Virus record (IMG/VR): IMGVR_UViG_3300048020_000182
Location: 1-38,642 of that record
DNA from: a virus
Strand: one strand, 5' to 3'
Length of the DNA stretch: 38,642 bases
Position numbers and translations under genes: made by a program. The notes beneath the pieces are model-generated. The model did not search any database. It was not told where the DNA came from and saw nothing but the letters and a program-made list of their open reading frames with translations. Shown piece after piece: positions 1-37,424 of this stretch; within the stretch, counting starts at the first letter, position 1, and every line of letters starts with the position of its first letter.

Positions 1-3000
1 TTATTATATACTCATTGTCTGATAATTTACCATCCACCTTTATTATATTATAAATATCCTTAGGTGTTAGCGCTTGAATGTCATCCACTTTACTGACCTT
101 AAATATTAGGTCAGATAAATATTGAGAAGAATACGAACCTTTTCGCTTTTTGAGGGCATCAATGAAATCCTCACTGAGTGTTTTCGATTCTGTTATTTCA
201 GAAAATGCCTGTATGAGGGATGAGTTGCCTGTGTCAATATCATCAATAACCGTATCAGCAGTCTCTTGTCTTGCGGTTTGGACTTCGTGCTTAATTTGCT
301 TTGATAAGTTATCCCCGTGGTTGGACCGATCAAATATAACAGAAGGGTCGACGATTAAATCTTTCTCCAGGTTGGTAATCTCAGACACCAGACTCTTGTC
401 TTGCTTTGGGTCTAATTGATCAAGGTTAGCTGATAATGCCTCTCTTGACTGCTTTAAGAAGGATTCGACTTTTCTTAGTGCAATAGTCCTTGAGTGCTGG
501 GCCATCCCTTCGTTTGGCTTAATTGAGTCAATCGTCGTATCCGCCATTGCCTCATTGTAGTTCTTTACGAGTTGCTTGACTTGCTTGATTGGTGACCTAC
601 TTCCCTTGAAGAATTTCTTAATTACATCTTCCACGCCAAGTGTCGGTTCGTTAAGAATACGCCTAATGTCCTCCATTGATTCTGATATGGAAGCAAGTAA
701 TTCATTTGTCGCCGCAGCTTGCATTTTTGCTCCTGCTATTTCATTTGCATCTCTATCTAAAGTTTGGTTCTCGTTCGGGTTCCTATCACCTTCGAGGGAG
801 TCTTCCATTGCCTGACCTCTACCGTAGTAGTTCTTAATACCCTTATCTCTGGCCTCCTGTTTAAATCTTTCCCTTTGCTTATTTGGTGTAGCATCAAATA
901 TTGCATGGAGACTATCTATTTCATTTAACGCATCCATGTAGGAAGCACTTGTATTCTCGCTTATTAGATTTGCTAGTTGCCTATCCATCTGCCTGTCGTT
1001 ACCACCCCAATTAATATCACGAGCAGCTAATCTTGTTAGGTCACGAAGTGGTAGTTTTGTTACAATCTCAGGCTTATCAAATGGCCCTTCCTCACTAAGT
1101 GGAGTTTCCAAAATCTTGGGGTCTTTCCCTAAACTATCTGGGGAATATATATCAAAAGGTTTTAGGTCTTCCTGACTTATAGGAAATGATAAAGACTTAT
1201 TTGGCTTAGTCTTAGTTCCCAGTAGGGAATCCATGTACTTAGTTATCCCTGACTTTAGGGATGGGGACATATCAAAATTACTAAATAGTGACTCAGTATC
1301 TTCCGTTAGGATTACATCTATTGCTTCAAATGGTGTATCAAAACCAAGATAGTCATCTCTCTGTAATGCCCTTAATAGGTTACGCATTCTTGGATTAAGT
1401 TTCTTGAGTGAATCCTTTACGTACCCTAATTCATCCGGGGTTAATCCATCAAAGTCGCCAGTGATAACCGCAGTTACATATGAAGTATCATCCATATCTT
1501 CAAACGCTTCAAGATATTCTTCTGCTACATCCTTTTTGTAATTCTGTAATACCTCTACTGAGATTCTAGAATTATCTATCGAATCATTCATTAAGAAGTC
1601 GTAAGTTTTTCTATCCGCTATATTCGGTGGAATACTGACACCTGGAAGTAATGCTTGGTTTTGTGCCTCTAGTTGACGAGAGAGTTCAAGGATGGAACCA
1701 AGAGCCGAACCTTCTGTGTTAATTCCAAATGTATTTAATAGCTTAACATAGGCTGCATATAGAGCATCCATAAGGGTGGATATTAAGTTTTTCCCGTTCT
1801 TATCTATCCTTGTCTTTATTCCCTCGTTTGTAATTTTTGTTTCAGATAGAAACTTTGCAAAGTCTTTTCTTGTCCACGCGTAATTCAATGTCTCAGACAC
1901 TGCTACTTGGTCATTGGAGAATAAAAATGTAAACTTGTTTGCACCCTTTGTTTTCTTAATCTCAGATATGACATCTTTTATTAAGTCATATGTTTCTTGT
2001 ATCTCACTTCTTTGACCTAGCCTTGCCTTGTCTTCATGGGCACGCAGTTGTGTTTCCATTGTTCCATGCCATACCTCGTGCATGAGTACCGACATTAAAA
2101 CATTTGTTGTTTTGTCTTCGACAAAATTAAAAGGCAGTTCTTCCGTAATAAAATCATTTTTCCCTGCATGGAATTTTCTATTAATAAATACTGAATCATC
2201 CACTCGGTTTCCTCGAGTTATACTATTTGGTGTAGATAAAATATTATCCACCGGAATTACGCTTAGTGGTGCATCCCTGTCAGCGAGTGCTTTTTCCACT
2301 ACCTCTAGGTATTTATATAGAAACTCATTTGACTTTTCACTTATTCCGTAATTCTCCACATACCTCTTCATCTTTTCCAACACCACGGGTGCAAAGATGT
2401 TATCACCAATTATATTATCGATTGCTCTTTTGTTTCGAGCCTGTTGGTCTTCGGAAAGAATTACATTCTGCTCAAAATTTGTCCTTCTCTTTAAAGATTG
2501 AGTGACATTGTGATTATCTGCATTATCCGCGATTGAGTACGATGTGGAGTCACCAAGGTACAGGTCGGACATATTTTGAATTACGGGCATTCCTGGGGCA
2601 CTTATTCCATTTGTAGGTTCCTCTGCATTAACCGCATCTTTCTCCACCTTTGTTTGCGGTATTCCATAAACAGATGCGTTTAACTTTTTAGCATTTATAA
2701 CTCTATTAAAAAGAGCATAAGGTTTGTGCCTTTTACCCAACTGCTTGATTGCATCTTCTGCAAACCCCTCAATTAAGTTTTTAACATCATCCAATTGGGC
2801 TGACATACTTGTTCTAGTTGTGTCAAATACATCAGCGTCGTTAATCAGATCAATCGCACTTGCTATATCAGATACCTTTGTGGACTCTCCAATTGCGTTT
2901 AGTATTTGTGAGCCAAGTCCATCATTCCCAATAGCAATTTTTGAAATTGCATTAGTAAAATCCGATAAATAGTCGAATGCTTTACCTGGGTCTTGGGTTC

Positions 3001-6000
3001 TAGCTAAATTAAATGCGTGTAGTGTTGCTTCAGCTGCACTTGGGTACCTACTGCTATCAGATTCCTTATATACCTGTTGCAGTACATTGATACTGTTTTC
3101 TTTAATTACTAACTTTTCCTCCGAATTACTAAAACTCTCGGCTAAGGCAATCCATGCTTGCGAATCACTTGCTTTAGTAAATACAGTCTCGCTTGATTTT
3201 TCGGTATCTGAAAGCGGATTTTGGCTACCCATCCACTGTAAGAATTGGTAGACCACGCCAGGTTCGCCAACCCCACCCCATTGATAGTTTCCTCCGTTTC
3301 TTTCAGAAAATAGTAAATTATATACAATCGCCTCTGGCTTTTTCAATTCACCAGGTTCAGTCGACTCCGAATCTTTATGAGCATTAAGGTTTAATGTATC
3401 AGTAATAACCTGTATGCTATCTGTTCCCTGTAAGTTTTCATTAGAGTACTCAACAAGTATATTTATTTGCTCTGGGGTAATCCATAAAAGTGAAGTGTCG
3501 TCTCTGCCGAATTTCTTAATATCAACAAGTTTTGCACTTATAAAGTTGTCAGCATGCCATACTTGATCAGAGAATCGCTCAGGAGCGGTACTTGCTTCAA
3601 GCCCAAGCATATTGAACACGGACTCCATTTCTCCGTCTTTGCCTTTTGCTTCTCTTACTCCATCTACCTGACGCTCGGTATCATTGTTAATTTGATATCT
3701 ATCAAATGTTGCCTTGTATAAAAGTGTTGCAAATTTATTTACATTTTCATCCGTGATATGTTCATAGTTGTTCTTTAATGCCAACTTAGCGTTTTTTGTT
3801 GGCCTCGGGATGTAAGCTTTCTTATCCCTGTCCTGTATTTTTGCATCCCTATTAATTGCATCCGCTATGGACTTTCTATCCTCCATAGGAAGTTTCTGCA
3901 CTGCATCTCCTATTTTTATCTCACTTGCTGGGTCTGCGGTAGGATATCCAAAAAGAGACATCGATAGTTCGATACTAAATGGAAAGTCTGCATCCTTTGT
4001 ATTCTCGTCCTCTATCCAATCATCTAGGGTAATTCCATCAATCTCATTTCCATCGTCATCCTTTCGTGGCATTGAGACGAATTGCGTATACCCCGGTCCG
4101 CTTATCGCATCATCATGTCGCTTTTTTGCTTCTTTAATTTGAGAATCTATAGTTTCCTCTGCATCCTCAATCTTACTAAATATATCACCTTCTTCAGATA
4201 ATATATCTTCATCTATTTGTTTTATTAATTCCTCAACCTGTCCTTCATATTTTGAATAATCTGCCTTCTCCACGCCCTGTTGGCCTGATTCATTACCTTG
4301 AGGTATTCTTGTGTTTATATACGAATCTAGTGAGCGCATAGACTCTTCGAGAAGTGTTAGCCCTGATGGATCAAAATTAAATATTGAGCCCAGTATTTCA
4401 ATTATCTCCTCAAATAAACTTTTCCCATCACCTGGTAGTTTTGATAGATACTCTTGTAGATATTCATCCGAGTACAAGTCAGCAACAAACTCAAAAAAGT
4501 TGCCTAGTGATGAAGCGAGTCTGTTATTACTATTTTCTTCTAATATTCTAATTTTCTTTCTATCTAGCTTATTATATTCACGGGCCGCAAAGTCCCATGC
4601 CTCGAATAATTTTTGAATATCAGGATTATTAAACTTTGTTTTCCCTTTTATTAACTTGGCATTATTTGTTATCTCATACGCAGTTAGTGAATGCATAATC
4701 TCGTGCAGTATGGTGCTATCATTTGCAGTCTCGGAGATTAATATTCCACCCATGGATTTACTGTCGCTTTTGTAGTTATACAATCCGTGAAAATCAACTT
4801 CAGGCGCTCGAGTAAAACCAACTCTCAGCCTTTCAAAAATCTTACTATTTTTATTTAATCTTTTAGCTAAGCTAGAAACTATAGGATTCTTACTTTTTTC
4901 AAGCTGACCTAATACCTCAACCCCTGAGTAACCACCAGTTGCTATATTGACTCCCTTGTCATTATATGATGATACGTCATTCTTCCAGTCAACTTCCCTG
5001 TCCTTTAGAAAATTGACTACCTCGTCCGAGGTAAGCGACTCTCTATTCTCCTTAACTATTGGCTGTAATTCGTTATTTTGAGCAGCTTCCAATTCTGTAG
5101 ATGCCTGCTCTAGTCCTGCCTTGATTGATGTTAACTCTTGAACCCTAAGAGCTTCGTCAGTGGCTTCTTCCTTTATGGTTTTAAATTCAAAATATGCTTC
5201 TGCCTCCTCAACTACATCCCACTTTTCATCTTTGTATGCCTGTATGACCTCGTTTTGATATTCTTCACTGTTTGCCTTTTCTTCTATGTCAGCAATTTTC
5301 TTCTTTGCTGTCTGCCCAGTCTTCCTAATGGGTAGAACCTTAAACGAACTTAACCAAGTTTCATATTCATTACTGCTTGTGAAGTCTTGCCTAAGACTAC
5401 CCTTTGTCGCACTTAACCATACTGAACTATATACCGAGAATCCTTCCGGTAATTCACTGACCGACATGCTAGATGCTTCTTCGCCAAGATTAACTTGTAC
5501 TGTACTCTGCCTTGTCTTTCTCTTGAGATGAGAAATCTTTATTTCGCCCTTTTCTCGCTTTACTGACCTAACAAAAATTGACCCCGACTTTTCATGCTTT
5601 ATTGCTACAAGGTGAACCGAACCTGTGTCCGTTCCTTTTGGTAAATCGTTCCTTAGTTGGTACTTCTTTGTGGTGTCTGTACCAAGAATAATTTCCTCAG
5701 GATTTGCATTTCTTCCCTCAAAGTTTTGTGAATCCTTAACCCTAACATGAGTTTGAGTACTTGGGTCTTCGAGGGAACTAAATTCACCATCTTCTTTCCC
5801 GTATATATACTTTGCCTCATTCTTTGATTTACTAGCGACAACTTGATAATTATCTTCCGAGTTGATTGTGTAGTTAACAGAAACACCATCAAAAGAAATT
5901 TTAATTTTTTGATTCGATGGAGTAATGACCTCACTAACATCAAATGGTTTTTCTAATGATAATACTAAATCGGAGAGTTGATTATAGTCCGACCTTTCTT

Positions 6001-8722
6001 TCTTGAATTTACCTCCCCTTGAAACTACATCAGGATTTACATTTAATATAGATTTACTAGCACCAACTATGAATACATATTGCCCATTCTCAATGGTAGG
6101 AATCGCACCTAAGGTAGAGCCGTCTATTTCTTCTACTTCTGGAGTTTGAGGTGTCGGTGTCTTGGATGAACTGGGCTTAGAAGAACTAGGTGTTTTCTTT
6201 GTGGTTTGCTTGGTGGTTTGCTTAGGTCTGTTTAAAATTTCATCAACCTTTGCTTTATCACTAGTATTTGCTTCTAATGTGGATTTAAGAATCCCAAAAT
6301 CTTTTACATAATCATCGTAACTATTCTGCCCCGCAATCTTACCAGTACCAGGGTTTTTATTCTTATCGGATAGATTCTTTGCGGAGAATTCTTTTTCCCA
6401 ATCTTTTTTCGATATAGGCTGAATATCTAAAGGTTTACCTAAGTTTTTACTAGTGGCATATGCAATTTCTAGTTCGGGGTATGTTTGACTTACAAACGCA
6501 TCACTTGAACGAACTTTAAATATCTCAGATTTACCTCCTTGAATTTTTCTTATTCTGTCAGCAATTTTTACCTCTTCTTTTCTCTGTGCAATTTTTACTT
6601 TAGCCTCATCTGCTATCTTTTTTAATCTGTCTGCTTCTGCGGTTTTTTCAATGTCTTCAGCTTTTTTCTGATCTGCCATTAAATCTCCTGCAGTCTTAAA
6701 TCCAGCACCATGAAATTTCTCAGCACCATTCTTAAATGCTGTTATAAACTCTTTGTATCCAGGATTCCTTGAGCCATAAAACATCACTGACCATTCTTTA
6801 AATGCCTCAGTAAATCCCTCTTTATCCTTTAGTTTACCCTTGGTTAAGTCGTCACTCGTTATGGTTTCGTCTGCTAATAATTCGTTAAGCATTGAGTATG
6901 CTTGAGCCTCAGGAAGTGGAATGCCATTAACCTCTCTTTTCCTTAGTGCATCTTTGGCGTCCTGCTCTTCTTGGTATTCTGACTTCTTCTTTCTTCTTTT
7001 CCCTTCCTTGGTGCCTTCTTGCTCTGCTATCTTTTCTTCTCTGAAGTTATCTACTGAGGTTTTTTCACTTGATGAGTAGTCATCTAATTTCTTATTGATT
7101 TCAGCTATTCGCATTGTCGCCTCTGGGGACGCTCCTGCTTTTAACTCCTCCGTAAGGTAATCACGCTCTATAATTAAGTCTCGGATTTCTGTACTCTCAG
7201 GTGATTGTACTTCCTCCTCTTGCGTGCTCTCAACCTCTTCATATTTGCTAAGAGATTTTAGTGGTACTCTTTTCTCTACCAGTCTGTCTAAGTCAGGGTT
7301 TGGTTTAACTGCAATTACTGCATCCTCCCCGGATAATCCCTTAAACTCAACTACATCACCTTCTTTCGTTATTACCTTCTGCCCAATATCAAATGCTTTA
7401 GTTGGCGCAATCTGAGATACTGCTTCTTCAGTTGCCTCGGCTTTCTCCGCCTCTGCCTTGATTATCGCATCAAGATTATTTTGAAGTTCTTCCTTTTTTG
7501 CTTTCTCCGCCTTCCTGTCTGCTAGTTGAGACTTTGCTCCTGCGGCTAACTCAGTTGCACCAGAAAAAGTAGCACCTCCTATCATACCCAAGATACCACC
7601 ATCAATCAGTGTATCAATCTCTTGATCAGAAAATTCCGTTAAGTCAAATGGTGAGTCCTCATTGTGTGCAAATTTCTCCGCAACAACATTTAAATACTCC
7701 TGAGTTGCTTCAGTTCCACCCTCTAGAACTATACCCTTTGCGGTTTGCTTTAATAGTGCTTGTTTTACAAAATTATCTGCTAGTTCAATATCCGATGCAG
7801 TAGGATTTTTTCCGGGGAAAAACTTCTTTAATAGTTTTGGTCCAACCATTGATGGAAGGATTGAATCTAAAGCACCAATTGCTAAACCAAACTTCCATGA
7901 TAACGCCTCTGCTGACTCGGGAGTAACATAATCTGAGTCTTGCTTATCAAGCTGAGTATAGGGATATAAACTACTATAGACCTCACCTACGCCCATAGTT
8001 CCACTAGCTGCGGTAGTGGTGCCTAGCATACTTAAACCCGAGGCATAACCTTTTGCAATGTCCTGCATCTCGGGTGCAAGCTCTGCATATCTTTTACCTA
8101 TTGACTTCGTGTAGTCATCTGCATCGATTCCTTTCTTGGTAAGATTCTTTGCGTACTTCTTAAGAGCCGGTCCAACTACTGCCTTCTTGAGCACTTGTTT
8201 TCCTATTAATCCACCAACTGAACCTACGCCAATTATTGGACCTCCTGACCCAACTACCCTACCAATACCGCCTGATAAATATCTTAATCCTTCTCCAATG
8301 CTATTAACTTCGGAGTATGACTGAATAGTGGGTGCGTCTACTTGAGACTCTTCCATATTCTCCATGGATTTGCCCATCAGGTAATCTGACGCACTATCAA
8401 GTCCTACCTTCTTTGCCATGAATCCAGCACCACCATAAATCATGCCCTGAGATTCATCTATTGCCTGACCTATCCCTGCCCCGATTTCTTTTATTCCACC
8501 AAAGAATCCATCGCGACCTAAATCCTCTGCCTTGTATGCATTAACTACAGACTTGTACTGCTTATTAAACTCTGGGTATTCCTTGATTTTCTGAGGGCCA
8601 TACTCGCCCTCCATAGACTTACCCAGCTTGTATGTTAATTGCTGATCCGTGAAGTTAGATACATTATTTCCTTCCTTGGTAAGTTTATCCTTATACCAAT
8701 CAAGCAGGGATTTATGCTTCAC
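1..8722 (-). CDS. Giant internal virion/ejection protein candidate with two HExxH zincin-like motifs (3' end outside window)
   Basis: I read this frame by hand from GTG at 8722 to the left edge without meeting a stop, giving at least 2,907 residues; the C-terminus lies outside. GTG follows the upstream stop by one base, with an AAGGAAGGG ribosome-binding site inside that gene's end. Residues about 147-185, 224-245, 277-292 and 372-396 are glycine-rich and hydrophobic, and EGGTEATQE lies at 334-342. A Lys/Glu-rich stretch follows at about 400-430, and a Pro/Ser/Thr/Lys linker at about 831-862. HEIMH is at 1340-1344 with a possible third zinc ligand, Glu1411 in FEFVAD. HEVWH is at 2215-2219 with Glu2277 in VSET downstream. 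The last gene of a T7-like internal-core series is normally the giant ejected protein (gp16-like). Large phage polyvalent proteins often carry such zincin domains. I see no lysozyme or transglycosylase motif in the visible part. The reading frame is near certain; the role is inferred. Confidence 0.85.
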   Translation of the reverse strand, partial: MKHKSLLDWYKDKLTKEGNNVSNFTDQQLTYKLGKSMEGEYGPQKIKEYPEFNKQYKSVVNAYKAEDLGRDGFFGGIKEIGAGIGQAIDESQGMIYGGAGFMAKKVGLDSASDYLMGKSMENMEESQVDAPTIQSYSEVNSIGEGLRYLSGGIGRVVGSGGPIIGVGSVGGLIGKQVLKKAVVGPALKKYAKNLTKKGIDADDYTKSIGKRYAELAPEMQDIAKGYASGLSMLGTTTAASGTMGVGEVYSSLYPYTQLDKQDSDYVTPESAEALSWKFGLAIGALDSILPSMVGPKLLKKFFPGKNPTASDIELADNFVKQALLKQTAKGIVLEGGTEATQEYLNVVAEKFAHNEDSPFDLTEFSDQEIDTLIDGGILGMIGGATFSGATELAAGAKSQLADRKAEKAKKEELQNNLDAIIKAEAEKAEATEEAVSQIAPTKAFDIGQKVITKEGDVVEFKGLSGEDAVIAVKPNPDLDRLVEKRVPLKSLSKYEEVESTQEEEVQSPESTEIRDLIIERDYLTEELKAGASPEATMRIAEINKKLDDYSSSEKTSVDNFREEKIAEQEGTKEGKRRKKKSEYQEEQDAKDALRKREVNGIPLPEAQAYSMLNELLADETITSDDLTKGKLKDKEGFTEAFKEWSVMFYGSRNPGYKEFITAFKNGAEKFHGAGFKTAGDLMADQKKAEDIEKTAEADRLKKIADEAKVKIAQRKEEVKIADRIRKIQGGKSEIFKVRSSDAFVSQTYPELEIAYATSKNLGKPLDIQPISKKDWEKEFSAKNLSDKNKNPGTGKIAGQNSYDDYVKDFGILKSTLEANTSDKAKVDEILNRPKQTTKQTTKKTPSSSKPSSSKTPTPQTPEVEEIDGSTLGAIPTIENGQYVFIVGASKSILNVNPDVVSRGGKFKKERSDYNQLSDLVLSLEKPFDVSEVITPSNQKIKISFDGVSVNYTINSEDNYQVVASKSKNEAKYIYGKEDGEFSSLEDPSTQTHVRVKDSQNFEGRNANPEEIILGTDTTKKYQLRNDLPKGTDTGSVHLVAIKHEKSGSIFVRSVKREKGEIKISHLKRKTRQSTVQVNLGEEASSMSVSELPEGFSVYSSVWLSATKGSLRQDFTSSNEYETWLSSFKVLPIRKTGQTAKKKIADIEEKANSEEYQNEVIQAYKDEKWDVVEEAEAYFEFKTIKEEATDEALRVQELTSIKAGLEQASTELEAAQNNELQPIVKENRESLTSDEVVNFLKDREVDWKNDVSSYNDKGVNIATGGYSGVEVLGQLEKSKNPIVSSLAKRLNKNSKIFERLRVGFTRAPEVDFHGLYNYKSDSKSMGGILISETANDSTILHEIMHSLTAYEITNNAKLIKGKTKFNNPDIQKLFEAWDFAAREYNKLDRKKIRILEENSNNRLASSLGNFFEFVADLYSDEYLQEYLSKLPGDGKSLFEEIIEILGSIFNFDPSGLTLLEESMRSLDSYINTRIPQGNESGQQGVEKADYSKYEGQVEELIKQIDEDILSEEGDIFSKIEDAEETIDSQIKEAKKRHDDAISGPGYTQFVSMPRKDDDGNEIDGITLDDWIEDENTKDADFPFSIELSMSLFGYPTADPASEIKIGDAVQKLPMEDRKSIADAINRDAKIQDRDKKAYIPRPTKNAKLALKNNYEHITDENVNKFATLLYKATFDRYQINNDTERQVDGVREAKGKDGEMESVFNMLGLEASTAPERFSDQVWHADNFISAKLVDIKKFGRDDTSLLWITPEQINILVEYSNENLQGTDSIQVITDTLNLNAHKDSESTEPGELKKPEAIVYNLLFSERNGGNYQWGGVGEPGVVYQFLQWMGSQNPLSDTEKSSETVFTKASDSQAWIALAESFSNSEEKLVIKENSINVLQQVYKESDSSRYPSAAEATLHAFNLARTQDPGKAFDYLSDFTNAISKIAIGNDGLGSQILNAIGESTKVSDIASAIDLINDADVFDTTRTSMSAQLDDVKNLIEGFAEDAIKQLGKRHKPYALFNRVINAKKLNASVYGIPQTKVEKDAVNAEEPTNGISAPGMPVIQNMSDLYLGDSTSYSIADNADNHNVTQSLKRRTNFEQNVILSEDQQARNKRAIDNIIGDNIFAPVVLEKMKRYVENYGISEKSNEFLYKYLEVVEKALADRDAPLSVIPVDNILSTPNSITRGNRVDDSVFINRKFHAGKNDFITEELPFNFVEDKTTNVLMSVLMHEVWHGTMETQLRAHEDKARLGQRSEIQETYDLIKDVISEIKKTKGANKFTFLFSNDQVAVSETLNYAWTRKDFAKFLSETKITNEGIKTRIDKNGKNLISTLMDALYAAYVKLLNTFGINTEGSALGSILELSRQLEAQNQALLPGVSIPPNIADRKTYDFLMNDSIDNSRISVEVLQNYKKDVAEEYLEAFEDMDDTSYVTAVITGDFDGLTPDELGYVKDSLKKLNPRMRNLLRALQRDDYLGFDTPFEAIDVILTEDTESLFSNFDMSPSLKSGITKYMDSLLGTKTKPNKSLSFPISQEDLKPFDIYSPDSLGKDPKILETPLSEEGPFDKPEIVTKLPLRDLTRLAARDINWGGNDRQMDRQLANLISENTSASYMDALNEIDSLHAIFDATPNKQRERFKQEARDKGIKNYYGRGQAMEDSLEGDRNPNENQTLDRDANEIAGAKMQAAATNELLASISESMEDIRRILNEPTLGVEDVIKKFFKGSRSPIKQVKQLVKNYNEAMADTTIDSIKPNEGMAQHSRTIALRKVESFLKQSREALSANLDQLDPKQDKSLVSEITNLEKDLIVDPSVIFDRSNHGDNLSKQIKHEVQTARQETADTVIDDIDTGNSSLIQAFSEITESKTLSEDFIDALKKRKGSYSSQYLSDLIFKVSKVDDIQALTPKDIYNIIKVDGKLSDNEYII

Positions 8723-8723
8723 G

Positions 8724-10847
8724 CTATTTACCCTTCCTTAGATTTTCCAAATACTCATCCAACCCATTAACCACATCACCAATTGGTCGAACTTCAGATG
8801 AAGCAGGCTCAGTTGCTTCCTCGACCACATCAGGATTAACATCAATTACGGCACTATCGGGCTTCAACATGTTTTCCATATTTTTTAAATCGGGATAATT
8901 ACCTTCCTCAAATCCAAGTGAATTAAGTTTCTCACTTTTTGAATTAGTAGAATTTATTAACTTCTTATAATCTTTTACCTGTTTAGATGTTAACCCAAGT
9001 TCGCCCTCTGCGTCAGGGCCATTTATTTTTTGTATAAATTCAGAAATTAATATTGGTTTCGAGAATAGTAGTTTCTTATTCTTACCTCCACGCATTTGCT
9101 TATAATTCATATACCCTGTGTAACCATCATCGGGAGATGTAAAAAATCCAGCAATATTAACTTGCTTACCCTTATTAGATATAAGTGTGCCCAATTGGTT
9201 TGAATCGCCTATAGTCTTGGTGTCAAAATTAAATACATCGGCAGAAACACCTGTCTCCTTTGAGGCTAGGTCCACTAGATTTTGAACCCCATTCTGAAAA
9301 TTATCTTTCCTTGATAATAACTCTTTTTTTTCTTTGGCTACCGCCCTTGAGCCATCCGTTCCAATTCTATTAATAAATCTTTGAACCTTATCCTCCTCAG
9401 CCTTGACCTCAGCCTGCTCCGCACTCAAAGCCTTGGCCTCAGTTGGTATGTCTCCACTGTCGGGCAATCCTAATGAATTAGATCCAGGTGCGGGAGGAGT
9501 AGCTATTGATGCACCTGGTCCAGTCACTCCATAGTCTAGTCCATATCGATTTTGGAATTGTAACTTATCTTCATCATTCCACTCAAGTTCAGGTTTAGAA
9601 ATATTATTCCCCTGACCATCATCAACCACCCTAAAGTTTGCATTATTACTTTGAAAGAAAGTACCAGGTCGGTAAGTGGGTAAAGTTTCTTTTAAGTATC
9701 CTGCACTACCAATTGTTATAGGGCCAGTCGCTAGGCTTGGAAATCTATTATGCAATCCTAGTATATCTTGGTTGTTCCTGCTAATTTTCTTTTGCAATCC
9801 AACCAATTGACCACCTACTATCTTATCGTATCTAGCAGTCACTTCTTTTGCATTTTCTCCTGATGAATACTTGCTATATAGCTCTCTCTTTAAGTCGGGA
9901 ATCATGGATTTATCTACCACCATTCTTGGATTTTTTATTTTCGCGTAATCCATTGCTTGCTGGTCAGTATACATGCTATCAATTGCCACAGCACCCGCTA
10001 TTTGCCTTTGAGTTGCATATTGGTTTTCTAAGCTTGTTCTAAGGTCAAGCAAGTCATCATTGTATCCAATGTACTTCTTTGCTGCTCCTCGGCGAATCAT
10101 GTCATTCATTAAAGCTGGTGGCACTTGATCCATAACCTTAAATTGATCAAAGCTTCTCATTCCGGTGCTTTCTACAATCTGCTCCTTATACTGGTCCCAG
10201 AGAACCCTCTTTGCGTTTTCGTCTAATTTTGTATCCCAAATCCTTTGCATGTTACTGCGCGCAGTTTCAGGGTCGGCCGCCATCATCTTAGCAACATGAG
10301 GTTCAGCTTCAAATATACGCTCAAATGTTTCCGCATAATGCTCTGAAAGGTTTTTGAAGTTTTCTTTTTCGAGTTTCTGCTCGTTATATATTTCGTCCTC
10401 TCTAGTGATTCTTCTCTTCCTGTCTTCCTGACCCTGTGAGTAATCTTTAAGATTCATCATCTGTTTCATCTTCTCTGGGTCACGAGCATACATCAGTGCA
10501 TCTGCATCTGTCATTTCTCCAAAGTTAGACTTTATCATATCTGCCATCTGTTGCGTACGCCCTTCGTTGGCTTCCGCTTTAATCTTCATGGCATCCATCT
10601 GTTTAACTTTGCCTACTGCTCCTGCAATGGTTCCTATGATTCCACCTGGATCCACAGATGCAGCCATACCAATTTGACCAAGACTTGGGTCATTAATATC
10701 AGGGTCTAAGCTAAGTGCGGTAAGTTGGTTTCCCAATCTGTTTGCCTCTGCCTTTTGGGTTAGCTCATCCCTGTTTCTCTCCCTATTGTAGTTCGATAAG
10801 TTCTGTTGGAATAACTGACTCCCTGCTGTATTTATTGTCTTTGCCAT
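8724..10847 (-). CDS. Internal virion protein candidate (T7 gp15-like position), 707 aa
   Basis: Long hydrophilic, largely alpha-helical protein rich in Gln, Ala, Asn and charged residues. Its N-terminal part has one short Gly-rich hydrophobic patch (about 68-80, PGGIIGTIAG). Residues about 90-240 look helical and charged. A Pro/Gly-rich linker lies at about 450-470 and an acidic C-terminal tail follows. I recognise no catalytic motif. It starts three bases after the stop of the glycine-rich 442-aa gene and ends one base before the giant gene. That is the place of T7 gp15, a DNA-ejectosome component, and the assignment rests on position, size and composition only. The start has no clear Shine-Dalgarno sequence, so translation may be coupled to the upstream gene. 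Confidence 0.8.
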   Translation of the reverse strand: MAKTINTAGSQLFQQNLSNYNRERNRDELTQKAEANRLGNQLTALSLDPDINDPSLGQIGMAASVDPGGIIGTIAGAVGKVKQMDAMKIKAEANEGRTQQMADMIKSNFGEMTDADALMYARDPEKMKQMMNLKDYSQGQEDRKRRITREDEIYNEQKLEKENFKNLSEHYAETFERIFEAEPHVAKMMAADPETARSNMQRIWDTKLDENAKRVLWDQYKEQIVESTGMRSFDQFKVMDQVPPALMNDMIRRGAAKKYIGYNDDLLDLRTSLENQYATQRQIAGAVAIDSMYTDQQAMDYAKIKNPRMVVDKSMIPDLKRELYSKYSSGENAKEVTARYDKIVGGQLVGLQKKISRNNQDILGLHNRFPSLATGPITIGSAGYLKETLPTYRPGTFFQSNNANFRVVDDGQGNNISKPELEWNDEDKLQFQNRYGLDYGVTGPGASIATPPAPGSNSLGLPDSGDIPTEAKALSAEQAEVKAEEDKVQRFINRIGTDGSRAVAKEKKELLSRKDNFQNGVQNLVDLASKETGVSADVFNFDTKTIGDSNQLGTLISNKGKQVNIAGFFTSPDDGYTGYMNYKQMRGGKNKKLLFSKPILISEFIQKINGPDAEGELGLTSKQVKDYKKLINSTNSKSEKLNSLGFEEGNYPDLKNMENMLKPDSAVIDVNPDVVEEATEPASSEVRPIGDVVNGLDEYLENLRKGK

Positions 10848-10850
10848 AAT

Positions 10851-12179
10851 TTAACCAAATGTGTTGCCCGCCCAAGTTCCTGAAAACATATCAGGCGCAG
10901 CAGAATACCCACCGGAAGGAGGTGCTAGAACAGTACCATACCCAGTTGGGGTTGATCCGCCCCCTCCGCCAGCTCCCAAACCTTTAGCTAACATATACCC
11001 ACCCAATCCACTTTGCACTCCTGCATTAAGATGTGCCATTGGATTGTTAGGAGTGGGAGCCGTGTACGAGGGTACATTATACTCAGGTGCTCTACCCTGA
11101 CCTAATTGAAATCCTCCTTTATTCAACGCACTTGATGTAGCGTTTTCGGGAAGAAAGTAATTTTGTACCCCTGCTGTTTGATTGGCGGCCAGTGTGTTAA
11201 GAGTATTATTTATTTGTCCGATATTCTTTTGCTCGGCTAAGTTCTGTTCATAAGCAGCAAACTTAGCGGCCTCATCAAGCTCATTAATCCTCGACCTTTC
11301 TCTTACCCCTTGTAGTCCTTCTCCTGCCGTGGTGATTGCATCCTTCGCAGTAAGGACACCTTCTTGTGCTGTCTGCACTCGGTCTTGCTCATTGAGTACC
11401 TGGTCTCGTTGATTAAGGACATCTACATTTGCTCGGTTTCCTGCCATGCCTACATATGCATTCATTAGTGCTTGAAGAGATTGCGCGCCTCCTAGACCTG
11501 TTCTTACGCCATTCCTGGTATTGTTATTACCCGCCTGCCTTTGTGCTTCTAGTGTCATTGCGGTTGCCTGTGACTGAAGTCCTGCATTTCTTGCATCCGC
11601 AATACCATCTCTTGCATTAATCATCTGCTCGCGAGCATCTCCCACTAATCCTCTTGCATCTCCTACACCCGCACGAGCGTCACCAATACCTTGTCTAGCT
11701 AAGTCAATTTGGTCCTGACCTTGTAATCTCTGATTAGTTATTCCTTGAAGGTATCGTTGTGATTCAGAAAGTTGAGAACCATCATAAATTCCTCTAATTG
11801 CCCCAACTGCACCTTGCTCTGCTCCTGCAAGACTGTCGCGATACCCACCCATTTCCGTCGCCATTTCATTAGGATTATACGCCTCCTGCAATGCTCCGTA
11901 TTTCCCCTCTATACCTGTGGCTAAATTATTTTCTAACCCTGAAAGGTAGTATGGAAGAATTGCTGAACGCTTATCGTCAATTAATCCATTTTCCAAATCA
12001 TAAGCAGAAGCACCACGAGATTGATAGAATCGCTCCATCTCCATCCTATTTGCTTCATCTGCAATTGATCGGTTGGCATTATTTTGTGAGTCTTGAGCTT
12101 TTCTTGCATTCTTAGATGCTGACATTGATGCCACGCCACCTATAAGTGCTGACCCAATTATTGCTGTTGCTACTCCCAT
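10851..12179 (-). CDS. Glycine-rich internal virion protein candidate (T7 gp14-like position), 442 aa
   Basis: I chose ATG 12179 over an upstream in-frame ATG at 12209 because AAAGGAG lies seven bases before it, inside the end of the GNAT-like gene. The longer start would overlap that gene by 29 bp. The protein begins MGVATAIIGSALIGG, a hydrophobic Gly/Ala segment that could insert into a membrane. A long Gln/Ala/Arg-rich helical region with recurring GDAR and ADAR units (about 160-210) follows. The C-terminus is low-complexity, with GAGGGGGSTP and Pro/Ser/Tyr stretches. T7 gp14 is a small ejected protein that forms an outer-membrane pore. The hydrophobic start and the position before a gp15-like and a giant gene fit that role. 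This is inference; no sequence identity is claimed. Confidence 0.8.
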   Translation of the reverse strand: MGVATAIIGSALIGGVASMSASKNARKAQDSQNNANRSIADEANRMEMERFYQSRGASAYDLENGLIDDKRSAILPYYLSGLENNLATGIEGKYGALQEAYNPNEMATEMGGYRDSLAGAEQGAVGAIRGIYDGSQLSESQRYLQGITNQRLQGQDQIDLARQGIGDARAGVGDARGLVGDAREQMINARDGIADARNAGLQSQATAMTLEAQRQAGNNNTRNGVRTGLGGAQSLQALMNAYVGMAGNRANVDVLNQRDQVLNEQDRVQTAQEGVLTAKDAITTAGEGLQGVRERSRINELDEAAKFAAYEQNLAEQKNIGQINNTLNTLAANQTAGVQNYFLPENATSSALNKGGFQLGQGRAPEYNVPSYTAPTPNNPMAHLNAGVQSGLGGYMLAKGLGAGGGGGSTPTGYGTVLAPPSGGYSAAPDMFSGTWAGNTFG

Positions 12180-12180
12180 A

Positions 12181-12624
12181 TCAAATCTCCTTTTGGTAGG
12201 TGGTTTCAATCATCTTATAACCTTTTCTTTCGTACAGGCTTTTTAATTTCTCAGGCATGGAATTTGTCAGGTGAATCATATTCATTCTCTTTGACCCACT
12301 TTCCTTTGCCCACTTCTCTGCCTTAAGAAATAATTTCATTCCACCACCACGACTTTTTTCGTCCACAAACCAAAAAGCCTCAGTTGCTGTCATTACGCCA
12401 TCCTCAAGAGCCGGAAAAAGAATAAGTCCAATCCCTCCAATAATTTTATCTTTATCCCAAAGTCCAAATATTTTCCCCGCACCTGAGCCAATTAAATTAA
12501 ACCATCTATCAGACCATTGACCAATATCAAAGAATACTTTCTTGTATGGCATAATGTCATAAAAAGACGCAAGCACACCACCTAAATCTAAAAGCTCTGT
12601 TCTATCTTCTATTGATTTTATCAT
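12181..12624 (-). CDS. GNAT-fold acetyltransferase-like protein, 147 aa
   Basis: The size and C-terminal half match the GNAT N-acetyltransferase fold. A beta strand TEAFWFVDE (81-89) leads into SRGGGMKLFLKAEKWAKESG (91-110), the acetyl-CoA-binding loop and helix. LYERKGYKMIETTY (130-143) is the typical last GNAT segment. Phage GNAT-like proteins at this place include the T7 gp13 type, which is virion-associated and needed for morphogenesis rather than a proven enzyme. The gene begins with ATGA overlapping the stop of the collar-domain gene and ends at the ribosome-binding site of the next gene. The fold is well supported. Whether it acetylates anything is open, because the glycine loop is RGGG rather than the common Q/RxxGxG/A. 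Confidence 0.8.
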   Translation of the reverse strand: MIKSIEDRTELLDLGGVLASFYDIMPYKKVFFDIGQWSDRWFNLIGSGAGKIFGLWDKDKIIGGIGLILFPALEDGVMTATEAFWFVDEKSRGGGMKLFLKAEKWAKESGSKRMNMIHLTNSMPEKLKSLYERKGYKMIETTYQKEI

Positions 12625-19043: not shown

Positions 19044-19958
19044 CTACCAATGAGACATCGTGGCATGATTGTTTGTTAAAACCCCATTGGTTTCAAAAGT
19101 GATATTATTACTAAAAGTAAATTTCATGCTGTAAGTACTAGGAGTACTTGTACTACTGCTGTATACTTTGTAAATTTGCGCCCCTATTATAGTAGCGGGT
19201 TCTGGACTCGAAATTGAACCTCCAGTGGAATTCCTCCCTGCGAATGTAATAGTACTAAGACCACCACCACTACCGGAAATTCCATCAAGTTTTGTTTTAT
19301 CCCCTGATGACATTAGTCCACTTGCGCTAGTTGTGGCATCACCTGGAACTATGTTCCCAAGACTTACTTTGCTTGCCTTACCCTCCAAGGTTGTGGATAA
19401 ATCAGTTATATCTGATATAGCATGACTGTGAGCAGAAGGTGCAAAGAGGTTAGGTATACCTGTTAAGGTATTGTATTCATGACTATGTGAGGATGGATTA
19501 AATTCATTTGGTACATTACTTAAATCACCATAATCCCCCGTCTTCCCAACTGTACTAATATTTAATTGATCAGCAGTTACACTATGAGGGTTATTGGTTG
19601 AATCTATATGGTCAGTTATACTTGCAGTTAATGTACCCTCTAGGTTTTGTATGGCTTCATTTATTTCACCATCAAGACTCCTTACTAAATCATTTGCTAA
19701 TTGAGAAAGTTCATTTTTAGCACTTATTAAATCCCCTTGCGTACCTTCTTTTAGATCCGCAACTTGGAAATTTACCACCATATCTCGAATTCGATTCAAG
19801 TTTTCATACACCGATTCCCACCACTCCTTAAGTAATAGATGATAATGACTTGATTGGTCAGGATTCTGATCCGATAAAAACTTAGGGAGTAATGGAATTT
19901 CATCTGGCCCAGTAAACTTTGGATCAGTACCTACCTTATGTTTTTGATTCCCAATCAT
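19044..19958 (-). CDS. Tail-fibre protein with coiled coil and GLMSSGDKTKLDGI tip segment, 304 aa
   Basis: The first 40 residues are a Pro-rich start. A helical region with WWESVYENLNRIRD and long Leu/Asn/Glu heptads runs to about 120. Repeated HSxxADQLN, GDYGDLSNVP, SSHSHEYNTLTGIP and SAHSHAISDITDL units follow. These His-x-His segments are typical of trimeric phage fibres. GLMSSGDKTKLDGI is a widespread fibre shaft/tip signature. The C-terminal about 70 residues are beta-rich with a Gly hinge (GSGGG). The start overlaps the upstream tail gene (ATGA). It is confidently a fibre protein; the receptor is unknown. Confidence 0.85.
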   Translation of the reverse strand: MIGNQKHKVGTDPKFTGPDEIPLLPKFLSDQNPDQSSHYHLLLKEWWESVYENLNRIRDMVVNFQVADLKEGTQGDLISAKNELSQLANDLVRSLDGEINEAIQNLEGTLTASITDHIDSTNNPHSVTADQLNISTVGKTGDYGDLSNVPNEFNPSSHSHEYNTLTGIPNLFAPSAHSHAISDITDLSTTLEGKASKVSLGNIVPGDATTSASGLMSSGDKTKLDGISGSGGGLSTITFAGRNSTGGSISSPEPATIIGAQIYKVYSSSTSTPSTYSMKFTFSNNITFETNGVLTNNHATMSHW

Positions 19959-22276
19959 CCTTGATTAGGTGCTGATTGCGAGAGTTTTGAACTAACTCCA
20001 CTAACTTCAAATGTACGACCAATTAGTTTTATTGGATTATCTTTACCTTCTATAATAATCGCATCCCTAAAGTATGGACCACGCAAGTATAATGGTAGCA
20101 TATTTTCAGATGTAGTATTATCCATTAAGTGTTCAGCCTCCACCCTTTCACCTGAAGCAAATTCATATTCCCCATCCTCGTTTAGTTCCACTTCAGTTAT
20201 ATCATTATTAGCTGCTTGAGCAGATGGTAGTGTTGCAATTCTTACTTTTACATTAGCAGATGATGGAAGTCCGTATAGTGTATTCTCTGCCACATGCAGT
20301 GCATATGACCTAACATCTTTGTCATTAAATTGATCAGTAAAATCTATTAATCCACTTTGAAGAACTGACCTATATTCATTTCCATATCTATTATATATCG
20401 CATAATTATCCGGTCCCCTTCCGTACCTTACCAAGAAGTGAAATATATCATCCGATGTCCCTGCAAATTGATTAATGTTCTTTTCCTTATCTGATACCGA
20501 AAATACAACCCACCTGTACTCTATTCTCTTTGTAGTGGCCGGTCTTGTTATTTGCGCCCCCGCTGTAAATACTTGGTCTATTTCAGATACGGTATTATTT
20601 TCATAATCAAATGCATAAGTTCCTTCAGGCGAGCAGAAAAAGATTTCTTTTGTTTCTCCATTGTCCACCGTGAATACACGCTCAGATTGATCAGCACTTA
20701 AACCCTCCCAAAACCTAGTGCCTTTATCCATTGATTGAAGTAGTTTCGGCTGAGATGCAGCACGGTCGGTTTGATAAACTCCGGTATAACCCATGAAGAT
20801 ATGGTATCTGCCCGCAACATCAATTAATGTATTCCTAAAGTCCACTACTCGTGGACCTGTATATCTTCTTTCAAATTGAAAAACTTCAGCAGTATTGACC
20901 TTAATTGCAGTCATGTAACCCGTGTCCCTGTAAATCATAAGTCGATCTACGAGGGTTTTCATTTTAATTATTCGACTTCCGTCATCAACCAAATCCGCAA
21001 CCGAGGTGAGTCTACCAATCGAATCTAATCGAATCATGAACCCTGTTGTGGAATTATTAATAGGTTCAGAAAGTTCCTCATCAGTTATACTGCCAGGGGC
21101 ATTTGCGTTATTTCCTTCCTCGTCCACAATTGAATAAGTCTGCGTTCCATCACCATTATCAACAACTGATCCAATATGTATCCTTGAGTCTCTTGTAACC
21201 GAACCACTAACAATTGGAGTAGTGGAAAATGCACTATTAAATTCAACTCCATTCTCAAGTGTTGTTATTGGCTCTCCTGCACCAACTATAACAACCTCCG
21301 TTTTCTCTCTTGGGCTAAATGTAATTGCAGGATGCTCAAGGTTAGTTTTGTAATCTCCATCAGTGTCTGTTCGTAATGGATACTTAGAAACAAACTGATT
21401 TGTACCCTTCACCATCGTTCCATACAGAGCCGTGCCATAACGCAATCCGTCACCATCATAACTCCAGACTAATGAATAAGGGCTCCTGACTGTTTCGGTT
21501 TCGCCATTTAAGTAAGTCGGGCTATCTAAAACTTTTCCATAGGGGTCATCCCCTTTCATCCAATCAACCCAGTCTCTTGCCTTGATTTGTGTAATATCAG
21601 CCAGCATGAGGAATCCATTAAACTCACTAATTGTACCTACCGCAGCCATCCTATATGCAGGAGACTCTCGTAATTCTAAGAGTGGAATTGCCTTACTCCA
21701 ATCTTCCCGAAATGCAAGTGGCAAATCTTTTCCATTATTTAAATAAAGCACTCCATTTACAACAGTTGCCTCCCATGCATTAACCTCATTTGCGAAATAA
21801 TCTCCTACAGTATCATCCACTGAACATAATCCTTCAGCTATAATGTCCCACTTAAAGTCTGCCGGAGGTTCTGCAATATAACCTTCCTCAAAGTAAGTAC
21901 CAGGTGCCCATCCTGAAGATGTATTCTTATTTATATACTCAGGATTATTTACATAGCTATAACGATAAATCTTATCTCCTGCGGCTACCACTAGGCAGGA
22001 TATATTATTATTTGAGCGAAACTGACATATTAAACGGATCGGGTCGGTGGAGGGAGAATTGGTCGCAACTTGTGGAAATCCTTCTAAAAATTTACCTGAT
22101 GGTTTAAATATCTCCCAACCTTCTCTTCTTGCCTCCCCTTCTTGATGTCTGCGAAAATTTAACTTCTTTGTATAATGTTCCCCACTCGCACTTTCGCCTG
22201 CCAAGTTTTGCAACAAGGCACCCCCCATCATGGGCTTGATGGTTTTATTTACGAACTTTTTTGTTTTACTAGGCAT
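19955..22276 (-). CDS. Large tail tube/nozzle candidate (T7 gp12-like), 773 aa
   Basis: The N-terminus reads KPMMGGALLQNLAGESASGE, then LNFRRHQEGEARREGWEIFK. This resembles the start of podovirus tail tubular B/nozzle proteins, which build the distal tail tube. The rest is a long beta-rich protein with many Trp/Tyr-containing strands suggesting a propeller (RLICQF, CLVVAAGDKIYRYSY, HIFMGYTGVYQTDR, KEIFFCSPEGTYAFDYEN). Length close to 770 aa is normal for the family. Its start overlaps the 888-aa gene's stop (TAATG) with AGGA upstream. Assigned with moderate confidence from the N-terminus, size and order; a structure-based search would settle it. Confidence 0.8.
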   Translation of the reverse strand: MPSKTKKFVNKTIKPMMGGALLQNLAGESASGEHYTKKLNFRRHQEGEARREGWEIFKPSGKFLEGFPQVATNSPSTDPIRLICQFRSNNNISCLVVAAGDKIYRYSYVNNPEYINKNTSSGWAPGTYFEEGYIAEPPADFKWDIIAEGLCSVDDTVGDYFANEVNAWEATVVNGVLYLNNGKDLPLAFREDWSKAIPLLELRESPAYRMAAVGTISEFNGFLMLADITQIKARDWVDWMKGDDPYGKVLDSPTYLNGETETVRSPYSLVWSYDGDGLRYGTALYGTMVKGTNQFVSKYPLRTDTDGDYKTNLEHPAITFSPREKTEVVIVGAGEPITTLENGVEFNSAFSTTPIVSGSVTRDSRIHIGSVVDNGDGTQTYSIVDEEGNNANAPGSITDEELSEPINNSTTGFMIRLDSIGRLTSVADLVDDGSRIIKMKTLVDRLMIYRDTGYMTAIKVNTAEVFQFERRYTGPRVVDFRNTLIDVAGRYHIFMGYTGVYQTDRAASQPKLLQSMDKGTRFWEGLSADQSERVFTVDNGETKEIFFCSPEGTYAFDYENNTVSEIDQVFTAGAQITRPATTKRIEYRWVVFSVSDKEKNINQFAGTSDDIFHFLVRYGRGPDNYAIYNRYGNEYRSVLQSGLIDFTDQFNDKDVRSYALHVAENTLYGLPSSANVKVRIATLPSAQAANNDITEVELNEDGEYEFASGERVEAEHLMDNTTSENMLPLYLRGPYFRDAIIIEGKDNPIKLIGRTFEVSGVSSKLSQSAPNQG

Positions 22277-35129: not shown

Positions 35130-37424
35130 TTACTGTACTGGTTGTTGCATTCCCTGAGGGGGAGGCGCAAGTTCTTGTGGAGGCATTCCTGCCTGAAATT
35201 GTTGCGGTGGGGGTGGAGCACCTTGTGGTGCTGGTTGAGCTAATGCACCCTTAATTGACTGAACCTCTTGATTCATACCTTCGAGTATTTGCATGAGTTG
35301 GGGAACTTGTTGTTTTAACTGTTCAACAAACTGAGTATTAGCAAGGGACATATCCTCCTGGCTTTCTGTTTCAATATTTAAATCATATGCTGCACCTGAC
35401 AGTCTGAATATTTCATTCATTATCTCTAGTACCTTTTCAGTTCCTACTGCCTGCATAATTGGCTGAACGGAAACGACCTGTTGGAGTAACCCTGCTAAAG
35501 TTTGTGCAGACTGTGTATTAACGGCTCGCTCTGCCCCATCTCTTGATGAGAAGTTGTACTCATGGAATAATACTTCAGGCTTCCCGATAACTGTTCGCTT
35601 CGACTGCGGATTCCGATCTAGTTCACCCTCGTCTGCATCTAGTAGCCCTGCCCTTTTCACCACATCTTCTGTATATCTTCCGATAACAGGAACTTTAAAT
35701 TCCTCATTACTACAAGAAACTAAATGTTCAAATAACATCTTCTTAGCCCCACCTCTTAATTCATCTATACCTTCTGATATAAACGAATATATTGCCTGCG
35801 TAGTTGTAGCTATCTCTGTTACCTCTGTAGCAGAGATTTCACGAGGTGCTGGTTGCCCCAGTTCCTGTGGCGATAGAATAAGTAGTCGCTCAACTAGATT
35901 AAGCAATTGCGTAACTGAAGTCATTGCTTGAGATATTGATGACGCCATCTCTTTCTGGACATCAACCACAGTTATAAAATCCTTAGCATTTAAACCAAGG
36001 TCCGCCATCTTTGATCCGGAATAAAATATCGCATGTTGCTTTGAGTACAATGTGCCTTCGCTCATTGAATCCATGATGTAATCTTTGACCTCATCATCCA
36101 ATGCATCCTGGTCGATTGTGAAAATTTTCATCATTGAAATCTTCATATCGTGAAGCATCTTGTTCATGATGTTATTCATCTGGTCCTGAAATGGCATCAA
36201 CTCATGTGCAACGGATGTATTTACCATTCGTGCGTCATTCTGATTTAAACCACCATAAATAGCAGGAATACTAGGAAGAAACTCTGCATGCAGTACCGTG
36301 TTATCACTAGCGACTACCATCTTCATCCAAACATCGTGAGGATAATCACCAATACCTTCTTGCGCGGGATTAACCTTACAAAAATAATTTGTTATAAATA
36401 TCCCCTTATCTGTGTCCTCTGAGCCGTAAACGCCAACATTTGCAGTCCTGTCGTTCTTCATTGACCACTCTGATTTTCGAGTTGGGAAACGCATTGTTTC
36501 GGGCTCTAAATAATAATTAAAGAATTCTTTATAGGAATCATATGCACCAAAAAGATTACTATTAAAAGATATGTCGTCCGTGTTCCAATACCCAGAGTTT
36601 TCGGAGATGTCACTAAATTGAACAATATCCCAATACCCTAACCAACTAGGGCCGTTATCGGTATTAATATCCGCCATTGGTGCGGACTGGTCATGCATAA
36701 CTCTAGTCGGGTGTGGCTTAATAAAGTCAATACCCTCTTTGCATACATAACTACTAACTCCACTTTCTCTATCTTTATTAACTTTCCACTGGACATCTCT
36801 AGTCCACGCTTGCGATGGAAACATTACAACATGCCCATACATGAACATATCTCTAATGCCCTGAGCAAATAAGTGCCTATAGTTAAACTGATCAGCAATC
36901 ACCTCCACCCTTTGACTGAGAGCATCTGCCCTTAGCTTATCGACAGATGATGTCCCTCTTGGTTCATATTTAAAATACGGAAATAAGTTCGAAAAACGAG
37001 ATACCTGTGCGGCAACCCTTCGAGTTACGTAAGACCTAATAATATCGACAGAAACATCATAAAAGTTCTGTAGGTTGATATTTTTTAATGTACCTTCCTC
37101 ATCGTACTCGCAAAACTGCTCCGAACATCCTGCGTCAGTTAAACCTTGAGCCGCATCTTCAATATCTATCTTACCTTGAGCGTACTGAAGTAATGGAATT
37201 GATGCCTTATTAATAGGGAGAGTGTCCCATGCTAAATCAACAGACATATAGAGATTACTATGCTTGGCAGAATGAAATATGCCCTGCCGGACCCTCGACT
37301 CTATTTGGTCTTCAAATTTTGCCCTTATTCGAAAATTATCGGAGTTCTCGTCAGTCTCCGTAAATATCTGCATTAAGCGTTCATGCGTGCATCCGAATTT
37401 CTTGAGTATGTCTAAGTTTACCAT
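35130..37424 (-). CDS. Portal protein candidate, 764 aa
   Basis: A large portal forms the dodecameric vertex through which DNA enters and leaves. Supporting features: an N-terminal helical domain; the segment DVSVDIIRSYVTRRVAAQVS; a beta-rich wing with MFMYGHVVMFPSQAWTR and GIDFIKPHPTRVMHD; a central helical stem (HELMPFQDQMNNIMNKMLHD, VQKEMASSISQAMTSVTQLL); and a Gln/Pro-rich tail (about 725-764, GAPPPPQQFQAGMPPQE). Length near 760 aa fits long podovirus portals such as those of P22 or N4 type. The start has GGAG four bases upstream and overlaps the HTH-like gene by 44 bp. Placement after the terminase and before scaffold and capsid genes strengthens the call. Confidence 0.85.
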   Translation of the reverse strand: MVNLDILKKFGCTHERLMQIFTETDENSDNFRIRAKFEDQIESRVRQGIFHSAKHSNLYMSVDLAWDTLPINKASIPLLQYAQGKIDIEDAAQGLTDAGCSEQFCEYDEEGTLKNINLQNFYDVSVDIIRSYVTRRVAAQVSRFSNLFPYFKYEPRGTSSVDKLRADALSQRVEVIADQFNYRHLFAQGIRDMFMYGHVVMFPSQAWTRDVQWKVNKDRESGVSSYVCKEGIDFIKPHPTRVMHDQSAPMADINTDNGPSWLGYWDIVQFSDISENSGYWNTDDISFNSNLFGAYDSYKEFFNYYLEPETMRFPTRKSEWSMKNDRTANVGVYGSEDTDKGIFITNYFCKVNPAQEGIGDYPHDVWMKMVVASDNTVLHAEFLPSIPAIYGGLNQNDARMVNTSVAHELMPFQDQMNNIMNKMLHDMKISMMKIFTIDQDALDDEVKDYIMDSMSEGTLYSKQHAIFYSGSKMADLGLNAKDFITVVDVQKEMASSISQAMTSVTQLLNLVERLLILSPQELGQPAPREISATEVTEIATTTQAIYSFISEGIDELRGGAKKMLFEHLVSCSNEEFKVPVIGRYTEDVVKRAGLLDADEGELDRNPQSKRTVIGKPEVLFHEYNFSSRDGAERAVNTQSAQTLAGLLQQVVSVQPIMQAVGTEKVLEIMNEIFRLSGAAYDLNIETESQEDMSLANTQFVEQLKQQVPQLMQILEGMNQEVQSIKGALAQPAPQGAPPPPQQFQAGMPPQELAPPPQGMQQPVQ

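What the first reader, a model, noticed from the sequence alone, without database searches (positions are those of the whole stretch)
1..8722. Giant last ejection-block protein (at least 2,907 aa) with two distant HExxH motifs
The frame is open through the left edge. HEIMH (1340-1344) and HEVWH (2215-2219) each have a downstream Glu-containing helix (E1411 in FEFVAD, E2277 in VSET), as in gluzincin-type peptidases. T7 gp16 carries a transglycosylase at its start instead. Two separate peptidase-like modules in one ejected protein would suggest cleavage of host proteins or self-processing on ejection. Large phage polyvalent proteins with zincin domains are known (established); this exact double arrangement may not be described (inference).
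Basis: partly seen in the sequence, partly recalled or inferred. Interest (0 to 1): 0.72.

Follow-up and report, generated by a model that had tools for sequence, protein, structure and literature searches.

The report
Giant phage ejection protein, two zincins
A short-tailed phage encodes a giant protein (at least 2,907 residues), probably injected into the host with its DNA, that carries two related zinc-peptidase-like domains; proteins of this kind are already known, but this family of domain has no entry of its own in the standard family libraries.

Summary
In detail: the frame is on the minus strand (8722 to 2), starts with GTG, is open at the window edge, and holds exactly two HExxH motifs (0.02 expected by chance). 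Both lie in zincin-like domains of one family. Zincin 1 (HEIMH 1340, E1411) is homologous to a domain found in T7-like gp16 proteins, in large proteins of 80 IMG/VR loci and in solved ejection proteins (8VB2, 9SFN). Both His, the catalytic Glu and E1411 are invariant in 54 non-redundant homologues; AlphaFold places HExxH and E1411 in confident helices. Zincin 2 (HEVWH 2215, E2277) is conserved in the only close relative and aligns to zincin 1 by profile (P about 2e-5; best of 61 controls 0.07). Its two motif helices model well, its sheet does not, so a complete zinc site is not shown. The close relative (5,397 aa) lacks zincin 1 and carries about 1,700 other residues, so the interior is modular. 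It works like the polyvalent ejected proteins N4 vRNAP and P1 DdrB; up to five zincins per protein were reported in 2017. Self-processing versus host cleavage is undecided. A new member of a known kind.

The parts
2..8722 (-). Giant ejection-type protein gene, GTG start at 8722, at least 2,907 aa, 3' end beyond the window edge
   Evidence: homologue of 5,397 aa in IMGVR_UViG_3300048061_000822
7247..8722 (-). N-terminal conserved region (residues 1-492), shared by all three relatives
   Evidence: 65% identity to L001, 27% to L008
4283..4915 (-). Zincin domain 1 (about residues 1270-1480)
   Evidence: profile i-E 9e-28 with the window sequence left out of the profile; 54 nr homologues; AF2 mean pLDDT 76
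4691..4705 (-). HEIMH motif (residues 1340-1344)
   Evidence: H1340, E1341, H1344 invariant
4490..4492 (-). E1411, presumed third zinc ligand of zincin 1
   Evidence: invariant in 54/54 nr homologues; in helix 185-191 of the model
1643..2305 (-). Zincin domain 2 (about residues 2140-2360)
   Evidence: hhalign to the zincin 1 family P 2.1e-5 to 3.7e-6, best of 61 controls 0.07; second hit of the same HMM, 9.2 bits against at most 3.9 in 200 shuffles; 59% identity to L001
2066..2080 (-). HEVWH motif (residues 2215-2219)
   Evidence: conserved in L001; aligns with HEIMH; in helix 120-150 of the model
1892..1894 (-). E2277, presumed third zinc ligand of zincin 2
   Evidence: conserved in L001; aligns with E1411; in helix 187-200 of the model
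2..1075 (-). C-terminal shared block (residues 2550-2907), continues beyond the window
   Evidence: 47% identity to L001 residues 3695-4051
8724..10847 (-). Gene directly upstream (707 aa), gp15-like by position
   Evidence: same position and similar start in L001; no convincing family match
10851..12209 (-). Gene two upstream (452 aa), gp14-like by position
   Evidence: homologue in the same place in L001; no family match
19955..22276 (-). Structural protein in the tail-tube B (gp12) position
   Evidence: phrog_3287 virion structural protein, E 8e-16
35130..37424 (-). Portal / head-tail connector protein
   Evidence: phrog_6547 portal E 5e-7, phrog_332 head-tail adaptor E 6e-5

Best explanation
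The gene encodes the giant ejection protein of a podovirus of unknown host. It is packaged in the head and passes into the cell with the DNA, as T7 gp16 and N4 vRNAP do. It is a polyvalent-type protein with conserved ends and an exchangeable interior. Two domains of one phage zincin family sit 875 residues apart, each with HExxH plus a downstream Glu, and each is expected to bind zinc and hydrolyse peptide bonds once the protein has refolded in the periplasm or cytoplasm. Shown here: two homologous domains with conserved catalytic residues, the gene's place at the end of the structural block, and modular gain and loss against the nearest relative. Inferred: packaging and ejection, zinc binding, catalysis. 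Guess: cutting of the giant chain itself after delivery is slightly more likely than cutting of host proteins.
For: Two HExxH against 0.02 expected. Zincin 1 matches the zincin of T7-like gp16 proteins (MKPT02's is phrog_342, E 4e-165) and of large proteins in 80 IMG/VR loci. H, E, H and E1411 are invariant in 54 of 54 nr homologues. AF2 model 1 has mean pLDDT 76 with HExxH and E1411 in confident helices. Structure search of viral proteins finds internal protein D of phage BB8 and the internal core protein of RSB3. The family profile finds solved ejection proteins 9sfn (E 3.5e-33) and 8vb2 (3e-17), and 30 of 47 members match phrog_2206, virion RNA polymerase. Zincin 2 is homologous to zincin 1 and conserved in L001. 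L008, with a related N-terminus, has a 2,813-aa protein in the same place with one HEVAH.
Against: No virion proteomics exist for this phage. No catalytic activity has been demonstrated for any member found here. The paper on the 8VB2 ejectosome does not mention a peptidase. N4 vRNAP is packaged unprocessed although it holds such a domain (PMC5512222). Zincin 2 rests on two close sequences plus remote alignment; its sheet has pLDDT below 50 and its model has no significant structural match. The C-terminus of the relatives is not detectably related to T7 gp16's.
Confidence: 0.75

Rival explanations
1. The zincins cut the giant protein before or during packaging, as proposed for P1 DdrB, so that smaller pieces enter the head.
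For: P1 DdrB is processed before packaging and has a C-terminal zincin (PMC5512222). A chain of more than 4,000 residues is hard to pack whole (inference).
Against: N4 vRNAP, 3,500 aa with a domain of the same family, is packaged whole (domain relation). No cleavage site is known here.
Confidence: 0.2
2. One or both zincins are effectors that cleave host proteins, for example defence or envelope proteins, early in infection.
For: Iyer et al. 2017 propose this for polyvalent zincins. Zincin 1 is present or absent between sister proteins, as expected for an arms-race module.
Against: No target is known; presence or absence fits many functions.
Confidence: 0.35
3. The zincin acts on the cell wall or the periplasmic channel and takes over part of the role of the gp16 transglycosylase.
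For: Eight of nine T7-like gp16 relatives scanned have the zincin but no Pfam SLT match before it.
Against: Burkholderia phage Paku has both SLT and zincin; in MKPT02 the neighbouring protein is annotated with a lysozyme motif; the family has no known link to cell-wall cleavage; N4 vRNAP acts in the cytoplasm.
Confidence: 0.12
4. The motifs are relics with a structural role and no catalysis.
For: No activity has been reported for the solved relatives; the ejectosome paper does not mention one.
Against: The four catalytic residues are invariant among homologues that are mostly 13-23% identical to the window, which is not expected without selection for the site. The HExxH part of that count is partly built into the row selection; E1411 is not.
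Confidence: 0.1

Closest known systems
Zincin-like MPTase domains of polyvalent proteins (Iyer et al. 2017, PMC5512222)
   Same: Large multidomain phage protein in a late structural block; HExxH helix plus a Glu-bearing second helix; one to five zincins per protein reported, about 8% of those proteins with more than one
   Different: This lineage has no match of its own in Pfam, PHROGs or NCBIfam; none of the other partner domains of polyvalent proteins (RNAP, ART, ParB and so on) was recognised
N4 virion RNA polymerase C1 domain (residues 2124-2375; PMC12633501)
   Same: Giant ejected protein; its zincin with HELVH scores with the same profile (i-E 0.0011); 30 of 47 family members match phrog_2206
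   Different: No RNA polymerase recognised in the window protein; two zincins instead of one
T7-like gp16 (phrog_342) of Pseudomonas, Burkholderia, Bordetella and Achromobacter phages
   Same: Zincin 1 homologue with the same four residues; same place in the ejection block
   Different: Those proteins have 1,250-1,640 residues and one zincin; T7 gp16 itself has the SLT transglycosylase and no zincin; C-termini not detectably related
Phage PhiM1 tetrameric ejection protein gp48 (8VB2, PMC11440229) and 9SFN internal virion protein
   Same: Solved ejection proteins with HEAAH/HEAVH and the downstream Glu in the same alignment columns
   Different: Single zincin, about 1,300 residues, only remote similarity

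Membership tests
Phage zincin (MPTase) family of ejected proteins | HExxH in a helix | tested here: met
   Both motifs; helices 111-130 and 120-150
Phage zincin (MPTase) family of ejected proteins | Conserved Glu in a second C-terminal helix | tested here: met
   E1411 54/54, helix 185-191; E2277 aligned to it, helix 187-200
Phage zincin (MPTase) family of ejected proteins | Core beta strands before the HExxH helix | tested here: inconclusive
   Zincin 1 has strands 76-80 and 102-106; in zincin 2 this region has pLDDT below 50
Phage zincin (MPTase) family of ejected proteins | Zinc bound by two His and the Glu; peptidase activity | not testable with these tools
   No coordinates returned, no biochemistry
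Polyvalent protein (Iyer 2017) | Large protein with several unrelated enzymatic domains, delivered with the DNA | tested here: inconclusive
   Size, zincins and late-gene context met; no other enzymatic domain recognised in Pfam, PHROGs or NCBIfam; delivery not testable
T7 gp16 (phrog_342) | Match to the family over the protein | tested here: not met
   P0001 has no phrog_342 match; C-terminal profile comparison of its relatives negative
T7 gp16 (phrog_342) | N-terminal SLT transglycosylase | tested here: not met
   No SLT in P0001; present in T7 gp16 as control
N4 virion RNA polymerase | T7-type RNA polymerase module | tested here: not met
   No match in Pfam, PHROGs or NCBIfam for the part in the window

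The most novel reading that the evidence does not exclude
Two diverged copies of one zincin family in a single ejected chain have separate substrates, one cutting the giant protein into working pieces after ejection and the other cutting a host protein.
Probability: 0.2. Interest if true: 0.6.

Novelty: new member of a known kind. Interest (0 to 1): 0.4.

Why it matters
It ties zincins of N4-type giant polymerases, T7-like gp16 proteins and unclassified podovirus giants into one family that the standard family libraries do not name, and for which solved ejection-protein structures already exist. That makes an old question, what these peptidases cut and when, directly testable. The comparison with its sister protein also shows how such proteins keep their ends and swap their interior.

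Tried and rejected
Pfam, PHROGs and NCBIfam on the whole protein gave nothing significant. Single-protein PDB search gave only chance-like matches. Scans of viral contigs with zincin 1 of the window alone, or paired with MKPT02, found no relative; the T7-like alignment worked. Zincin 2 had no relatives beyond L001 in IMG/VR, GTDB genomes or phage records. Foldseek of zincin 1 against PDB gave nothing significant, although a putative peptidase (3ce2) and PprI appear in the list; zincin 2 gave nothing significant in BFVD. Homology of the relatives' C-termini to T7 gp16 was tested and rejected. The HERLH in T7 gp16 is not in a domain that the profile finds. Other giants have two HExxH motifs (L057-L059, L064, L076, L086-L088, L091), but the second is not of this family, and none of 95 ORFs has two copies at i-E below 0.05. 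The nearest phage by portal or tail-tube protein could not be named.

Full report
What is there. The window holds a podovirus-type structural block read on the minus strand: a portal-like protein at 35130-37424 and a structural protein in the tail-tube B position at 19955-22276, two proteins in gp14- and gp15-like positions, and last a giant gene from GTG at 8722 through the left edge, 2,907 aa without a stop.

Relatives of the whole protein. Only two were found. IMGVR_UViG_3300048061_000822 (L001) has a 5,397-aa homologue in the same place. Four blocks align: window residues 6-492 (65%), 551-1128 (32%), 1747-2360 (44%) and 2550-2907 (47%). Between residues 1128 and 1747, where the window has zincin 1, L001 has only about 185 residues with no HExxH; between 2360 and 2550, L001 has about 1,700 residues where the window has 190. 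Zincin 1 is therefore a module gained or lost between sisters. The more distant L008 (2,813 aa) shares the N-terminus with both (about 27%) and its last 1,000 residues with L001 (22%, E 3e-36), and has one HEVAH. Ends are kept and interiors differ. The relative suggests that about 1,300 residues of the window's protein lie beyond the edge (inference).

Zincin 1. A weak tblastn hit led to the 'internal virion protein C' of Pseudomonas phage MKPT02, which is a phrog_342 (T7 gp16) protein. Forty phage records carry that domain, and a scan with their alignment gave 80 IMG/VR loci. In 54 sequences below 80% identity, H1340, E1341, H1344 and E1411 are invariant (again in 47 rows). HExxH presence was part of the row selection, so only E1411 is a fully independent count. 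A profile without the window sequence finds zincin 1 at i-E 9e-28. AlphaFold2 gives mean pLDDT 76, with HExxH in helix 111-130 and E1411 in helix 185-191, both confident. BFVD matches include internal protein D of Bordetella phage BB8 and an internal core protein of Ralstonia phage RSB3.

Zincin 2. It is 59% identical in L001, motif and Glu included. The zincin 1 family profile aligns to it with hhalign P 2.1e-5 to 3.7e-6, while the best of 61 controls (other tiles of the proteins and shuffles) reaches 0.07. The same HMM reports it as a second domain with 9.2 bits; the best of 200 shuffled giants has 3.9. A joint alignment puts E2277 on E1411. The model is weaker: mean pLDDT 65, good for the two motif helices and poor for the preceding sheet. 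The model used remote rows, so it is not independent of the alignment. A closed zinc site is plausible, not shown.

What it works like. The same family profile finds three solved phage proteins: 9sfn internal virion protein (E 3.5e-33), 8vb2 tetrameric ejection protein gp48 (3e-17) and 23sg gp10 (9e-10). 8VB2 is the ejectosome of Pectobacterium phage PhiM1; that paper does not mention a peptidase (PMC11440229). Thirty of 47 family members match phrog_2206, virion RNA polymerase, and N4 vRNAP itself scores; its C1 domain with HExxH is described in PMC12633501. So the domain is a regular passenger of ejected proteins. Iyer et al. 2017 (PMC5512222) report zincins as the commonest polyvalent-protein domain, one to five per protein, about 8% with more than one, and discuss self-processing before packaging (P1 DdrB), after delivery, and host cleavage. 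N4 vRNAP is packaged whole.

Judgement. Observation confirmed: two related zincin-like domains in one probable ejection protein. The double arrangement is unusual in the sample collected here (none of 95 ORFs has two copies of this family) but not new in kind. Membership in T7 gp16 or N4 vRNAP is not met; it works like them. What the peptidases cut is open; I lean slightly to self-cutting after delivery over cutting of host proteins.

Noticed in passing
L002, L010-L017 (gp16-like genes), e.g. L015:2806-7728: T7-like gp16 proteins of many Pseudomonas, Burkholderia, Bordetella, Achromobacter, Variovorax and Providencia phages carry a zincin that annotation misses; several are labelled 'with endolysin domain' although Pfam finds no SLT before the zincin. 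Burkholderia phage Paku has both.
   Followed up: partly
window 12181-12624 (-): A 147-aa protein that reads like a GNAT acetyltransferase lies inside the tail/ejection block and is almost identical in L001 (1264-1707), far more conserved than its neighbours.
   Followed up: no
window 28350-28658 (-) inside 28300-28764 (-): An ORF with a lipoprotein-like LSAC signal lies in another frame within a holin-like gene; it may be an embedded spanin-like gene.
   Followed up: no
L001 giant protein, residues about 2000-3690: About 1,700 residues absent from the window protein, with no match in Pfam, PHROGs or NCBIfam; one stretch (GSHDFSRFNTREKVTRFTGQG) resembles ART-type motifs by eye.
   Followed up: partly
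L057-L059, L064, L076, L086-L088, L091: Giant proteins with this zincin plus a second HExxH that is not of this family.
   Followed up: partly
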